Origin: Tausonia pullulans
Lineage: Eukaryota > Basidiomycota > Tremellomycetes > Cystofilobasidiales > Mrakiaceae
Direction: 5' to 3'
Length of the DNA: 64,000 nucleotides
NCBI GenBank assembly: GCA_951802195.1
Contig: OX637625.1
Coordinates: 372,001-436,000, forward strand
Of the stretch, positions 1,167-31,599 are shown one piece after another (the stretch's first letter is position 1; the number at the start of each line of letters is the position of its first letter). The position numbers and the translations under genes are program-made. The notes under the pieces were generated by a model. The model had not been told where the DNA came from, did no database searches, and was given only the letters and a program-made list of their open reading frames with translations.

Positions 1167-1765
1167 TAGATTAGGGTATGAGTATATGTGCTTGTGCCTG
1201 TGTGTTTGCTGCCCAGATATGATCGACGAGTTCAAGGGCTGCTGATGAGGATCGTAGTTGGAAGTCAAGAAGCGAAGAGCAAGCGACGTCTTTCGCCCTC
1301 ATCCGGCGCAACGCGTCACCACCTCCGGCCATAGTAGCAACGCACACCTAGTTTGTGACAACAAGGACCGAGACGCTGTCAACATTGAGGTTCCTTTCTA
1401 TCCGAAACTAATCAGCAAACCAGATTGCTTGAGTCAGTGGGCTCTTGACTTCAGTAACCTGACGACGCTCAAGAGAGGGCTGCGGGGTGATAATACCCGG
1501 CCAAAAGCATTGTGGGTTGTTTTCCACCAACCGTATTATTTCCGTCCTCCTGCATTCACCAATCTCGAAGACTGCACGCCGTGACGAGGACGGGATGCCT
1601 TGCTGCTCCCAAAAGTGGTAATTGAGGTACGGAATATGCAAGTCGTCCATCTGGTTCTACCTCGGAAAGCCCAACGCATGCATGCGTCGGGAGGATCCCT
1701 TCTCTGCATGTGAAACGGTCTGCAAGAATTTTATACAAAGCTTGATCTTACTCGGTTTGTAAAAG
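1167..1765. other. Intergenic, no gene seen
   Basis: About 600 bp between the start of MVP1 and the first tRNA-Pro gene. Open frames are short, lack family resemblance and are not supported by splice signals. It presumably holds the MVP1 promoter. Confidence 0.5.
1761..1764 (-). terminator. Pol III terminator of tRNA-Pro(AGG) copy A
   Basis: On the minus strand the tRNA 3' end is followed after one base by TTTT, the RNA polymerase III stop signal. Confidence 0.75.
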
Positions 1766-1921
1766 GGTCCGAACCCGGGATTGAACCGAGGACCTCCATG
1801 AAGTGTGGTTTACAGTCGATGGGAATCCGATGAGATGGCCTACCGAGGGCTCACCATCTCACCTTCATCTCACAGACGTCTGGCACCCTAACATGGCGTG
1901 ATACCGCTACACCATCCAGAC
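1766..1921 (-). tRNA. tRNA-Pro(AGG) with an 84-nt intron, copy A
   Basis: The 5' half is 1921-1886 and the 3' half 1801-1766. The intron 1885-1802 interrupts after position 37. The acceptor strands GTCTGGA and TTCGGAC pair with two G-U wobbles. The anticodon stem CCATG/CATGG is perfect, and the loop TTAGGG+T matches proline tRNAs (anticodon AGG). The T-arm is CTCGG-TTCAATC-CCGGG. The A box (TGGTGTAGCGG) and B box (GGTTCAATCCC) are intact. The first 80 bp of 5' flank match those of copy B, so a larger unit was duplicated. Confidence 0.88.
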
Positions 1922-3095: not shown

Positions 3096-3271
3096 TCCCC
3101 GGTTGCCGATCTGCCTGTATATATCGGTCACTGGATACAATGCGCGAGCTCGCTTTGCGCGCGCGCGTCCCAACGCATCCCATGCATCCCCCGCCTTGAC
3201 CAGCAGAAATTGGGCGACCAAGCGACTGAATGATCACGTGACCAAGCGACGAAGGAAAAGGAAAGAAAAGG

Positions 3272-3276
3272 AAAAA
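3272..3276 (-). terminator. Pol III terminator of permuted tRNA-Met copy 1
   Basis: TTTTT on the minus strand, 21 nt after the end of the 5' half. Confidence 0.75.
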
Positions 3277-3297
3277 GGAAGACGAAGCGCTGCAGCA

Positions 3298-3374
3298 TAT
3301 GAGCCCGACACGCTACCATTGCGCCAGCCCGCAGTTAGTTGCGGGCTCCAGTTTCGATCTGGAAACCTTCGGGT
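3298..3374 (-). tRNA. Circularly permuted tRNA-Met(CAU), copy 1
   Basis: Read on the minus strand, the 3' half comes first (3374-3339) and the 5' half second (3333-3298), with a 5-nt linker between. All stems and loops are identical to copy 2 at 11989-12065, where the parts are described in detail. A TATA-like stretch at 3423-3432 lies about 50 bp upstream. Either copy, or neither, may be the functional gene. The identical sequence, intact promoter boxes and terminator argue against simple decay. Confidence 0.85.
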
Positions 3375-3482
3375 GTCTAGGTGCAAGCAACTGCATCTTC
3401 CTGGGAAAGTTGCTCTAGAGTCGGTATATAACTCGCTCACTAGAATGCCGACCCATATATTCGACACGGCGTGAGTTCATAT

Positions 3483-3794
3483 CCTCAGTCGGTCAGTTCA
3501 GTCCTTGAGTATTTCTTCTATTGCCATAGAAATAATGGTACGGGCTGTGCAAAGGTGGTTGAGCGATACCTGCGTAACTACGCCAGGCAGGGGAAAATCT
3601 TTAGCTCTCAGATCAAGAAATCCTGTATTTCAATTCTTCATCCCTCGATGCAAGTCGCGGATGGGACGAGGTGAAGCGAGAAAAGTGATGTTGAGCGCTG
3701 GTTCTGCCTTACAACCGCAAATCCCTTAGCACCATTGCTCTACTTCGACCTATCCTCGCAAGGAAGATAAACATAACGCATCATGGGTCTGGAC
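3483..3794. other. Intergenic, 3' flank of the PPIL2-like gene
   Basis: No gene seen. It follows the duplicate block and leads into the end of the cyclophilin gene. Confidence 0.5.
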
Positions 3795-11348: not shown

Positions 11349-11880
11349 ATGCGAATATTAGTGTGTCTTCTTCCAGACATCGGACGGAAATTGGACAGTC
11401 GCAGTGGGGAGGTGGCGAGGGCGGCTCAGACTGGGAGGGGAAGCGTTCCGTGTGGGCAGGAGGACTTTAGACTCGAAGCAACGAGCGACGAAGCTTCCAG
11501 TGGATTATTGGCGAATGAGGGCCTCGAGGGGTGCCTCTTGCAAGCAGACTGTAGAACTAGCGAGCTGGGAGCGGGCCACAGTGAAGCGTCTAGTCGCCAG
11601 GTGAACGATGCTGCAGAGTCGACGCGCTTAACTCATCATGATGCAGTGCTCCAGTGCTCTAGCGGTGAAGAACATGGGAGACCATCTTGCAAACCTTCTC
11701 AACCACCTTGATATGAACGTGACATCATGTCTCATTAACATGGTCTGACTGACGAGCATATGCGTCACAACTCACGAGTCAACATCGACAGTACCCCGCC
11801 TCCTCGCCGTGCTTCTCCCCCCTTTCTCTCTTTTCAGTTACTTTCGCTGAGAGAGTGAGAAGAATAAAACCCGATCGAAG
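11349..11880. other. Intergenic
   Basis: 3' flank of FMN1 up to the tRNA-Met duplicate block. No supported gene. Confidence 0.5.
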
Positions 11881-11930
11881 ATATGAACTCACGCCGTGTC
11901 GAATATATGGGTCGGCATTCTAGTGAGCGA

Positions 11931-11940
11931 GTTATATACC
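11931..11940 (+). promoter_or_regulatory. TATA-like element upstream of permuted tRNA-Met
   Basis: GTTATATACC lies about 50 bp upstream of the 3' half. It could help place TFIIIB, because the A and B boxes are in reversed order in this gene. Confidence 0.4.
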
Positions 11941-11988
11941 GACTCTAGAGCAATTTTCCCAGGAAGATGCAGTTGCTTGCACCTAGAC

Positions 11989-12065
11989 ACCCGAAGGTTT
12001 CCAGATCGAAACTGGAGCCCGCAACTAACTGCGGGCTGGCGCAATGGTAGCGTGTCGGGCTCATA
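11989..12065 (+). tRNA. Circularly permuted tRNA-Met(CAU), copy 2
   Basis: The gene order is 3' half (11989-12024), a 5-nt linker (12025-12029), then 5' half (12030-12065). The 3' half holds A38, anticodon strand CCCGA (11990-11994), variable AGGTT, T-arm TCCAG-ATCGAAA-CTGGA (12000-12016), acceptor GCCCGCA (12017-12023) and discriminator A. The 5' half holds acceptor TGCGGGC (12030-12036), TG, D-arm GCGC-AATGGTA-GCGT (one G-U), G26, anticodon strand TCGGG (12055-12059) and loop CTCATA with CAT at 12062-12064. Joined after position 37, the loop reads CTCATAA, that of elongator tRNA-Met. Acceptor, anticodon and T stems pair 7/7, 5/5 and 5/5. The A box (TGGCGCAATGG, 12037-12047) and B box (GATCGAAAC, 12004-12012) are intact but in reversed order. 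Maturation would need cutting and joining at the anticodon loop and removal of the linker. Confidence 0.88.
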
Positions 12066-12086
12066 TGCTGCAGCGCTTCGTCTTCC

Positions 12087-12091
12087 TTTTT
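12087..12091 (+). terminator. Pol III terminator of permuted tRNA-Met copy 2
   Basis: TTTTT 21 nt after the end of the 5' half, in a pyrimidine-rich stretch. Confidence 0.75.
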
Positions 12092-12249
12092 CCTTTTCTT
12101 TCCTTTTCCTTCGTCGCTTGGTCACGTGATCATTCAGTCGCTTGGTCGCCCAATTTCTGCTGGTCAAGGCGGGGGATGCATGGGATGCGTTGGGACGCGC
12201 GCGCGCAGATCGAGCTCGCGCATTGTATCCAGTGACCGATACAGGCAGA

Positions 12250-13231
12250 TCGACCAACCGCTATTCCTCCCCGACGCTCCTCAGCCCTCAACCATCGCCG
12301 CCCTCGCTACCACCACAACTTCATCAGCATCAGCATCATCATGACTGCCTCCGGCGGATGTATCTGCTAGCTCGCTCAAGGACATATCTGACAGGTTGAT
12401 ATTTTAACCTTTAGAGAATCTATAAATGTAAAATAATAAGGTCGAAGGCTTGCTTGCATTGTCGACATGTTCATACATTTGATGCATGCTTGCCATGTTG
12501 ATGCTCGACAGAAGGAGAGCTGGCCTTTGCACCGGAGACCAGCCAGCAGGAACGAACGCCATCAGCATTCATGCATGGGAGGATTGAGGTCAGTGGCGAC
12601 ACGACAGCCGTAGTTTCTGCCAACGGGCACGCGCCCAGGTTCCTCCCACCTGTGCGGCTAGCGGCCGCTCGATAACCGACGCTGGAGTGATCAGCTCGTT
12701 CCGGCCCTCGTGCTCTTCGTTCTCCCTCACAAGAACAACAGGACAGATGCGGGGAATGAAGGCCGAGGAGCGTCCGGGATTGGCCCTTCCGATCCGCCTG
12801 AGGAGCCAAACACGCGTCACCTTGACCACGTGACGTTCTGCCTGACCTCAGCTAGCTGGACCTTGTTGTCAAGCGTCTTGTCATCTCGTCGTCTCGTCAT
12901 GTATGTAGTAAGAGGAGTAATTATATTCGTGTACATGTTGCAAGGGAACGAAGAGACCTCTTGTGCAGGCTTACGCCGCTTGCCCGTCCTTCTGGTTTGC
13001 CATGCTCGATGCTAGTGTCAACCCAAGCCGGAGACGGGGATCGAACGCCGAGTCGGAAGGGAAGCCTCGGCATGACCCCGAGGCTCCCGCGCCGACCCTT
13101 TATTATTCGCTTCTCTTACTCCAAAGAACGCCCAACCATCTTATCAACCACCAAGACCTTCTTCTCTCGCAATCCCAGCCACCTCTCTCCGAAAGCCCAT
13201 AGTACCTTCGTCACCCCGCGTTTTGAGCCCA
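12250..13231. other. Intergenic
   Basis: About 1 kb with no supported gene. A short CATCAG repeat occurs at 12319-12345. The rest is unremarkable and probably includes the promoter of the DUF3533 gene. Confidence 0.5.
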
Positions 13232-15937: not shown

Positions 15938-17155
15938 GATGTGGCGTTTCTTTTAACTCAATATGCTTATCTCTGCAGTCGATCTCTTGTTTAGACGTCT
16001 AGTGATGACAAATATTTTCACTGTATTACACAGCCTAGGGCACTAAATTCAACGAGACTGCCTCGCCCATGTCCCTCCTGGCCTCTCATCCGGGCCTGCA
16101 TCACGATGTGCTAGTTGTCTACGCTGAAGCGTAGAACGAAGCTGACCGTCGAGAAGCTCGGCTGTGTCCAAATAGAGGTGAGGTGAGTGGGCATTAAGAG
16201 CAGGCGGCGGCAGCCATGAGCGCCGGGCTAGCTTGCCAGTGTCTTGTGGTGTTTGAGGCATCAAAAGCGAGAGTAAGGCGCTTCGCGTATCACAAGGTAG
16301 AGCTGTCGAGATGGTGATAGGATCTGCTCTGCTCTAAAATAAGGTTGTTGGGGAGAACCAGTGCAGGAGGTGGGACTGGCTCTCCCTCATCTCTCCCAGC
16401 TCTCTCCTCGACCATGTCATCACTGGCCCCTCCTTACCTCCTCTCCTGTGGCTTCTCGATAGTCGATGTCCGTCCATGGCGCCATTCGACCTTGGCGGGA
16501 CTCGACGTCTCATCGGCCGATCTTGTGCGCGATGTTTCACTCTCTTCTCATTGCCCCCCTTATCCTTACCCTTTCGTCGTGCTTTCACCCAGCTCCGTTC
16601 ATCTTCTGTAAGCCCTGTAACGATGAATAAACCATCCATTCTCAGCCTCGATTTGCACGACCTGTATCAGTCAATGTCTTGACCACTCAAGCCCTCCTCT
16701 TTATTGGTCGCCTTCCCTCACGTGGCATTGTGATGCCCTTGAACTGAAGCAGGCTGTATACCGTAGAGCATGGTTCAAGCTCTGAGAGGTGAGACCCCTG
16801 GCATATGAGGGAAGCGTGAATCGATGAAGAGAGGTCCTGTTGGAGCTTCGTTGGTTGAAGGCCTTGACAGCTGAGTCTCGGTGTACATCCAGATTACCTG
16901 ATCAATTGTCATGCATAGAAGACGGATCGACGTCGTGACGGACCCTGGCAAACGATGCCCACGAAGCCAGGAAAAAGGGGGAATGACGAAAGTAGCCGCA
17001 GAGGGAACGTTCAACATAGGTGCATGAGCGCAGATGCCGAAGTGGCAAGGCGTTGAGCCGAGGTGGCGAGTCCGCGAGATGCTGACAGCAAGTGTTAACA
17101 ACGATGCTGCTTTGTATCGCAGCACGGAAAATCTTACTCTTATTCGCAGCAAAAG
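15938..17155. other. Intergenic
   Basis: 1.2 kb between the DUF3533 gene and the tRNA-Pro cluster. Frames are short and overlapping. I see no gene. Confidence 0.5.
17151..17154 (-). terminator. Pol III terminator of tRNA-Pro(AGG) copy B
   Basis: TTTT on the minus strand, one base past the discriminator. Confidence 0.75.
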
Positions 17156-17308
17156 GGTCCGAACCCGGGATTGAACCGAGGACCTCCATGAAGTGTGGTT
17201 TACAATCGTTGGGATTCCGATGAGATGGCCTACCGAGGGCTCACCTCACCTTCATCTCACCGACGTCTGGCACCCTAACATGGCGTGATACCGCTACACC
17301 ATCCAGAC
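17156..17308 (-). tRNA. tRNA-Pro(AGG) with an 81-nt intron, copy B
   Basis: The 5' half 17308-17273 and 3' half 17191-17156 are identical to copy A in the mature part. The intron 17272-17192 differs by small changes and is 3 nt shorter. The 84 bp of 5' flank match copy A. Confidence 0.88.
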
Positions 17309-17837: not shown

Positions 17838-17986
17838 GGTCCGAACTCGGGTTTGAACCAAGGACCTCCAAGATGTGAGAGACTCTGGAGAATGCGCAGT
17901 TGAGTTGAGCTCCAGGAGCTCAACTCTCATCACACATCAATCAGATGTAGCCCAAACTTGGCGCGATACCACTACACTATTCAGAC
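17838..17986 (-). tRNA. tRNA-Pro(UGG) with a 77-nt intron
   Basis: The 5' half is 17986-17951 and the 3' half 17873-17838, with the intron 17950-17874 after position 37. Acceptor GTCTGAA/TTCGGAC, anticodon stem CCAAG/CTTGG, loop TTTGGG+T (anticodon TGG) and T-arm CTTGG-TTCAAAC-CCGAG all fold. The intron is unlike those of the AGG genes and contains GAGTTGAGCTCC...GGAGCTCAACTC, a strong hairpin. Confidence 0.87.
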
Positions 17987-27331: not shown

Positions 27332-27435
27332 GCCCTGCTAGCTCAATCGGTAGAGCGTCAGACTCTTAGTCTAAGTGTCTTACTCACTTTCACATGGTGA
27401 TCTGAAGGTTGGGGGTTCGACCCCCCCGTGGGGCT
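27332..27435 (+). tRNA. tRNA-Lys(CUU) with a 31-nt intron
   Basis: The 5' half is 27332-27368 and the 3' half 27400-27435, with the intron after position 37. Acceptor GCCCTGC/GTGGGGC, D-arm GCTC-AATCGGTA-GAGC, anticodon stem TCAGA/TCTGA, loop CTCTTA+A (anticodon CTT) and T-arm GGGGG-TTCGACC-CCCCC fold well. The base at the discriminator position reads T, which is unusual. A T8 terminator lies at 27445-27452. Confidence 0.88.
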
Positions 27436-31442: not shown

Positions 31443-31598
31443 GTCTGGATGGTGTAGCGGTATCACGCCATGTTAGGGTGTCTGACGTCGGTGAGATGAT
31501 GGTGAGATGGTGAGCCCCACGCGCGCCATCACATCAGATTCCCGTCGATTGTAAACCACACTTCATGGAGGTCCTCGGTTCAATCCCGGGTTCGGACC
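31443..31598 (+). tRNA. tRNA-Pro(AGG) with an 84-nt intron, copy C
   Basis: The 5' half 31443-31478 and 3' half 31563-31598 have a mature sequence identical to copies A and B. The intron 31479-31562 keeps the GGTGAGATGG repeats but has its own middle part. TTTT follows at 31600-31603. The upstream flank is unrelated to those of A and B. Confidence 0.88.
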
Positions 31599-31599
31599 C

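What the first reader, a model, noticed from the sequence alone, without database searches (positions are those of the whole stretch)
11989..12065. Circularly permuted tRNA-Met(CAU) gene in a fungal nuclear genome
The two tRNA halves are present in inverted order with only 5 nt between the acceptor strands. Seen directly: acceptor 7/7, anticodon stem 5/5 and T stem 5/5 pairs form only when the downstream half is placed first. The restored loop is CTCATAA with CAU, as in elongator tRNA-Met. A box, B box and T5 terminator are intact. Known: permuted tRNA genes occur in red and green algae, a nucleomorph and some archaea, and mature through a circular intermediate made by the tRNA splicing endonuclease and ligase. 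I know of no fungal case. A complete copy with perfect stems on both sides is hard to explain as random breakage.
Basis: partly seen in the sequence, partly recalled or inferred. Interest (0 to 1): 0.95.

Follow-up and report, generated by a model that had tools for sequence, protein, structure and literature searches.

The report
Fungal start-tRNA genes with swapped halves
A basidiomycete fungus appears to encode its translation-starting transfer RNA only as genes whose two halves stand in reversed order, so the RNA probably has to be cut, joined into a circle and reopened before it can work, an arrangement otherwise described from algae and archaea.

Summary
Window 11989-12065 is a circularly permuted tRNA-Met(CAU) unit: bases 38-73, a 5-nt linker, then bases 1-37. 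A second copy lies at 3298-3374, minus strand. The own genome holds 14 units in 11 distinct contexts; mature parts are identical except for one compensatory T-stem change. One point is wrong: it is the initiator, not the elongator (A54, A60, GGG:CCC); the elongator has 13 ordinary intron-bearing genes. No intact initiator was found.

The units look like working genes. Leaders pair with their own trailers better than with others' (0 of 20,000 reassignments as good), though two copies pair weakly. Leader base G(-3), which could pair with C32 as in tRNA introns, is invariant. TATA near -55 is in 8 of 11 contexts, against 3 of 75 sampled conventional tRNA genes. All 11 have T-runs. Sen2, Sen34, Sen54 and tRNA ligase matches exist. 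My searches of a held open-access library listed no fungal case. Expression and the circular intermediate are untested. Most likely mechanism: the algal type II pathway, here supplying a fungus's whole detectable cytosolic initiator tRNA.

The parts
11933..11938 (+). TATATA box, 56-51 bases upstream of the unit (copy 1)
11961..11988 (+). Leader arm of the leader-trailer helix; G at 11986 is the invariant -3 base that could pair with C32
11989..12024 (+). 3' half of initiator tRNA-Met (bases 38-73), holds the B box region
12025..12029 (+). Linker CTAAC between the acceptor strands
12030..12065 (+). 5' half of initiator tRNA-Met (bases 1-37, base 17 absent), holds the A box and the CAU anticodon
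12066..12087 (+). Trailer arm of the leader-trailer helix
12087..12091 (+). T5 run, likely Pol III terminator
3298..3374 (-). Second permuted initiator tRNA-Met unit, identical in sequence to copy 1
3425..3430 (-). TATATA box of copy 2
3272..3276 (-). T5 run of copy 2
3100..3492 (.). Arm of an inverted repeat holding copy 2; the other arm is 11871-12260 (97% identity)

Best explanation
These are functional, circularly permuted genes for the cytosolic initiator tRNA-Met, and they are the only initiator genes detectable in this assembly. Inferred working: RNA polymerase III, recruited in most copies through a TATA box about 55 bp upstream, makes leader, 3' half, linker, 5' half and trailer up to a T-run. 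The transcript folds into a cloverleaf closed at the acceptor end by the 5-8-nt linker and open at the anticodon loop, where leader and trailer pair into a helix that stands in for a tRNA intron. The ordinary tRNA splicing endonuclease cuts after base 37 and before base 38; tRNA ligase joins 37 to 38, giving a circle; RNase P and tRNase Z remove the linker; CCA is added. Shown by sequence: gene order, family, no detectable intact copy, own leader-trailer pairing, invariant G(-3), TATA, T-runs, enzyme gene matches. Inferred: transcription, cutting, circle, maturation, use in initiation.
For: 14 units in 11 distinct contexts, mature parts identical but for one compensatory T-stem change. Model R2, trained without initiators, finds the units 18 bits or more above anything else held. 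All 14 exact initiator-type 3' halves of the genome are in permuted units, and the undivided arm GGGCYCATAACCC is absent. Own leader-trailer pairing: 0 of 20,000 and 0 of 50,000 reassignments as good. G(-3) in 11 of 11 contexts, 14 of 14 copies. TATA at -60..-51 in 8 of 11 against 3 of 75 sampled conventional genes at -60..-50. T4 or longer within 35 nt in 11 of 11. Sen34, Sen2, Sen54 and tRNA ligase matches.
Against: No RNA data. Pairing is uneven: the own trailer ranks first for only 6 of 11 leaders (30-nt arms), and L045 and L046 pair weakly; in free folding 13 of 14 precursors form the permuted cloverleaf, L045 does not. The lowest-energy folds shown do not draw the C32:G(-3) pair. 3 of 11 contexts (L008, L045, L048) lack an exact TATA. 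Two yeast initiator features, A1:U72 and A20, are absent. The absence of an intact gene rests on this one assembly.
Confidence: 0.9

Rival explanations
1. The units are dead: a tRNA-derived repeat, or relics of tandem initiator genes that lost their outer halves. The true initiator gene is missing from the assembly or too diverged to be seen.
For: No expression data. The assembly may be incomplete. Some copies are recent duplicates. A full tRNA census was not possible (63 of 897 candidates scored).
Against: Dead copies would not keep mature parts identical in 14 of 14 but for one compensatory pair, nor flank-specific helices, invariant G(-3), TATA at a fixed distance and T-runs amid otherwise unrelated flanks. 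Three searches found no intact initiator.
Confidence: 0.05
2. The product stays in two pieces or a nicked form: leader and trailer are trimmed but 37 and 38 are never joined, as in two-piece tmRNA, or the RNA has a role other than tRNA.
For: Permuted rRNA and tmRNA work in pieces (PMC3978253 section 9). Ligation is not shown here.
Against: The break lies inside the anticodon loop, exactly at the splice position of this genome's introns, with the intron-like -3 base. A tRNA ligase with kinase and phosphodiesterase domains is encoded. Algal permuted tRNAs are ligated.
Confidence: 0.02
3. The permuted genes encode a second elongator-type tRNA-Met and not the initiator.
For: A1:U72 and A20, present in yeast initiator tRNA, are not found.
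Against: A54, A60, missing base 17 and GGG:CCC are found; 42 of 72 columns are invariant with three recalled eukaryotic initiators. The intron-bearing tRNA-Met family has the T loop TTCGAAT and is the natural elongator. No other initiator candidate was found.
Confidence: 0.03

Closest known systems
Type II (37/38) permuted tRNA genes of green algae, incl. iMet of Micromonas pusilla and Micromonas sp. RCC299 (Table 1 of PMC3978253)
   Same: 3' half before 5' half, junction 37/38, short intervening sequence, and in Micromonas the same tRNA (initiator Met).
   Different: Fungal host; 14 copies; linker 5-8 nt here against 47 and 12 bp in Micromonas iMet; no intact copy found; TATA strong here, only 'ambiguous AT-rich' in green algae.
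[quoted passage not shown]
   Same: Upstream TATA, T-stretch, processing expected through a circle; permuted iMet there too.
   Different: There iMet is split at 50/51 with a 74-bp linker, and TATA is found at permuted and non-permuted genes alike; here TATA is enriched at permuted genes only.
Permuted tRNA genes of the archaeon Thermofilum pendens (PMC3978253; PMC3218864 seen in listing only)
   Same: Permuted iMet.
   Different: Junction 59/60, CCA encoded, archaeal.
Ordinary 37/38 intron-bearing tRNA genes of the same genome
   Same: Same splice position; 32/-3 pair possible in 16 of 25 intron entries under ARAGORN's boundaries.
   Different: Normal order of halves; few have TATA at the distance seen here.

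Membership tests
Circularly permuted tRNA gene (type II) | 3' half upstream of 5' half on one strand, intact cloverleaf when rejoined | tested here: met
   14 of 14 units
Circularly permuted tRNA gene (type II) | Short intervening sequence between the acceptor strands (1-74 bp in known cases) | tested here: met
   5-8 nt in 14 of 14; range
Circularly permuted tRNA gene (type II) | Junction at 37/38 with an intron-like helix of the flanks | tested here: met
   Own leader-trailer pairing 0 of 20,000 and 0 of 50,000, G(-3) 11 of 11; weak in L045 and L046; a formal bulge-helix-bulge score was not computed
Circularly permuted tRNA gene (type II) | Upstream TATA-like element and downstream T-stretch | tested here: met
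   TATA 8 of 11, T4+ 11 of 11 contexts
Circularly permuted tRNA gene (type II) | Transcribed, matured through a circular intermediate | not testable with these tools
   No RNA data
Circularly permuted tRNA gene (type II) | tRNA splicing endonuclease and ligase present | tested here: met
   Sen34, Sen2, Sen54, ligase with kinase and CPD domains; Sen15 not searched
Eukaryotic cytosolic initiator tRNA-Met | CAU anticodon, A54, A60, no base 17, three G:C pairs at the anticodon stem end | tested here: met
   A54 criterion; A54, A60, no U17; G:C pairs recalled and seen in the recalled sequences
Eukaryotic cytosolic initiator tRNA-Met | A1:U72 and A20, as in yeast initiator | tested here: not met
   U1:A72 and U20. 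How far these define all fungal initiators was not established; the assignment rests on the other features and on the absence of another candidate
Elongator tRNA-Met | U54 T loop as in other elongators | tested here: not met
   A54 here; the elongator is a separate 13-gene family

The most novel reading that the evidence does not exclude
A fungus has moved its entire cytosolic initiator tRNA supply to circularly permuted genes, so that all translation initiation depends on tRNA splicing and a circular RNA intermediate. The family spread to 14 copies whose flanks each evolved their own intron-like helix, and most acquired an upstream TATA promoter in place of the scrambled internal one.
Probability: 0.8. 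Interest if true: 0.93.

Novelty: new variant of a known kind. Interest (0 to 1): 0.9.

Why it matters
The 2014 review lists permuted tRNA genes from six unicellular algae and one archaeon and says most eukaryotes lack them; a later paper adds another green alga. A fungal case in a multicopy essential tRNA would show that a yeast-type splicing system can sustain them and that they arise independently. It makes old questions testable: why initiator Met is permuted again and again (red alga, green algae, archaeon, now a fungus), whether Pol III can drop the internal promoter gene by gene, and whether tying initiator tRNA to splicing gates translation. It also shows that standard tools can miss essential tRNAs.

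Tried and rejected
Rejected: (1) elongator identity. (2) Chance or scrambled repeat. (3) An intact initiator elsewhere: restored-tRNA search, 3'-half pattern with up to 2 mismatches, GGGCYCATAACCC and an intronless tRNA-Met arm found none. A gene far diverged from all of these, or absent from the assembly, is not excluded.

Led nowhere: the exact 3' half in viral contigs and a looser unit pattern in prokaryote genome contigs. Species: Utp4 (best-scoring named hit Flammula, 45%) and mitochondrial cytochrome b (best 67%, unnamed; named hits 61-64% mostly in basidiomycetes), both with only the 8000 best candidates scored, point to a basidiomycete; a tree did not place it firmly, so the class is open. 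The whole-genome Rfam tRNA search scored 63 of 897 candidates, so neither a full tRNA census nor a genome-wide search for other permuted tRNAs was possible. In the 45 sources given to nothing but the initiator units scores above 35.9 bits. The control for the 32/-3 pair in conventional introns is partial: 16 of 25 distinct intron entries pair under ARAGORN's boundaries; the other 9 (2 'Ala' that look like misread elongator Met, 5 Pro, 2 Ser) do not, perhaps because the boundaries are ambiguous. The -60..-50 window was chosen after seeing where the TATA boxes lie; the wider -70..-20 window gives 8 of 11 against 11 of 75 (p = 1.6e-4).

Full report
What is there. Window 11989-12065 reads, on the plus strand, bases 38-72 of a tRNA, A73, the linker CTAAC and bases 1-37. 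Rejoined, it is a complete tRNA with anticodon CAU: acceptor 7/7, T stem 5/5, anticodon stem 5/5, D stem 4/4 with one G.T. ARAGORN without introns finds no tRNA in the window; with introns it finds five conventional ones; Rfam finds one conventional tRNA at 27332. None reports the unit. As a test against chance I permuted 9 conventional tRNAs of this genome in silico and built a covariance model from them, with no initiator in it. A second unit lies in the window at 3298-3374, minus strand, in the other arm of an inverted repeat (97% identity over 394 aligned columns).

A gene family. The own genome (23,855,473 bases, 21 contigs) yields 14 units on seven contigs. Thirteen have identical mature parts; one has a compensatory T-stem change. 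Linkers are CTAAC in 7 (the changed one included), CTAAAC in 2, CTAAACAA in 2, and CTTAAC, CATAAC and CTAAAAC in one each. Setting aside three near-duplicates (L040, L044, L050), 11 contexts remain, whose leaders and trailers are 27% and 31% identical on average, about what chance gives.

Which tRNA. The T loop ATCGAAA (A54, A60), the missing base 17 and the GGG:CCC anticodon stem are initiator features. A54 is the criterion in PMC3978253 (section 4); A54, A60 and the missing U17 are named in passages of PMC10602860. The GGG:CCC rule is recalled. Two yeast features are not found: A1:U72 (here U1:A72) and A20 (here U20). In an alignment with recalled human, yeast and wheat initiators 42 of 72 columns are invariant. 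The elongator is a separate family: ARAGORN finds a tRNA-Met with a 10-nt intron and the T loop TTCGAAT, and 13 places match it at 93-100% over nearly its whole length, intron included. Two mitochondrial tRNA-Met lie in the first 10 kb of contig 21.

No intact initiator. The restored tRNA gives 28 matches, 14 to each half, all in the permuted loci. A pattern for initiator 3' halves matches exactly at 14 places, all permuted, at none with 1 mismatch and at 5 with 2 mismatches; the backward control gives 3. GGGCYCATAACCC occurs 0 times, and an intronless tRNA-Met arm of either kind 0 times (control 1). So in this assembly every initiator gene that I could detect is permuted.

Signs of function in the flanks. 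Leader and trailer form a helix whose sequence differs from copy to copy; in free folding 13 of 14 precursors form the permuted cloverleaf with it, L045 does not. Own pairs average -17.2 kcal/mol, swapped pairs -10.2 (30-nt arms). None of 20,000 reassignments is as good, with arms of 25, 30, 35 or 40 nt; with the cloverleaf held, 0 of 50,000. The effect is uneven: the own trailer ranks first for 6 of 11 leaders (30-nt arms), and L045 and L046 pair weakly. The leader base at -3 is G in 11 of 11 contexts (14 of 14 copies), about 1e-8 at leader composition. It could pair with C32, the anticodon-loop to intron pair that the yeast-type endonuclease reads (A-I pairs: PMC3978253 section 8; the positions 32 and -3 are recalled). 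The lowest-energy folds shown do not draw this pair. In conventional introns of this genome 16 of 25 entries allow it under ARAGORN's boundaries: all Asp, Leu, Lys and those called Met; 9 do not. TATA lies at -60..-51 in 8 of 11 contexts; L048 has TATGTA at -56; L008 and L045 have neither. Among 75 conventional tRNA genes with distinct upstream DNA in the loci held, a sample rich in Asn and Trp, 3 have TATA at -60..-50 (Fisher p = 5e-7; window chosen after seeing the data) and 11 at -70..-20 (p = 1.6e-4). All 11 contexts have T4 or longer within 35 nt, against 6.7% of random 40-nt stretches of the window. Since A and B boxes are reversed, a TATA that recruits TFIIIB directly is the simplest promoter, as the review argues for C. 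merolae.

Machinery. Matches exist to Sen34 (its Pfam score is just under the cut-off, just over), Sen2 (one exon), Sen54 and a tRNA ligase: ligase domain, kinase and phosphodiesterase domains. Sen15 was not searched. The permuted unit at C6:345176 lies about 0.4 kb past the last open frame of the ligase gene, on the same strand.

Mechanism. Best supported is the algal type II route (PMC3978253: abstract, sections 5, 6, 8, 9 and the first parts of 4 and 10 read): cut at the helix that replaces an intron, join 37 to 38 into a circle, remove the linker, add CCA. Gene order, family, pairing, promoter-like TATA and enzyme genes are shown by sequence; transcription, circle, maturation and use in initiation are inferred.

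Origin (inference). The units share a linker core, so they probably descend from one permuted ancestor, perhaps tandem initiator genes that lost the outer halves, a model in PMC3978253. Some spread was by local duplication: in the window the two copies form an inverted repeat, and the two C14 copies, on opposite strands, share long near-identical flanks.

Literature. Six searches of the held open-access PMC library (permuted tRNA with fungi, Basidiomycota, yeast, initiator tRNA, split tRNA or fungal genome, or alone since 2015) list no fungal case by title or abstract start; some lists were shorter than the number found (for example 20 of 44). Passages read in PMC12633428, PMC8450103, PMC4090602 and PMC4501094 report no fungal case. 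Subscription papers and most preprints are not held, so a report elsewhere cannot be excluded.

Organism. Utp4 and mitochondrial cytochrome b point to a basidiomycete without a close named relative among the candidates scored.

Noticed in passing
window 1765-1921(-), 17155-17308(-), 17838-17986(-), 31443-31599(+): Four conventional tRNA-Pro genes with introns of 77-84 nt, unusually long against the 10-31 nt of Met, Leu and Lys here; a tRNA-Lys with a 31-nt intron lies at 27332-27435.
   Followed up: no
G000 contig C6:341837-345252 (L070, L041): A permuted initiator unit lies about 0.4 kb downstream of the gene for the tRNA ligase that would be needed to join its product, on the same strand. 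May be chance.
   Followed up: partly
G000 contig C6, about 684-710 kb, 808-829 kb, 990-1021 kb: Clusters with the tRNA order Leu-Lys-Asn-Glu(-Ala) recur on C6, some in opposite orientation, and 10 of the 13 elongator Met matches lie on C6.
   Followed up: no
linkers of the 14 units, e.g. window 12025-12029: Linkers keep a CTAAC-like core although the flanks are unrelated; descent or a constraint on end processing is open. The core resembles a spliceosomal branch point (recalled).
   Followed up: no
G000 contig C21 (L075, L081): An 18.8-kb contig with cytochrome b and other mitochondrial-type genes and 49-52% GC in the first 10 kb, high for a fungal mitochondrion (recalled).
   Followed up: no
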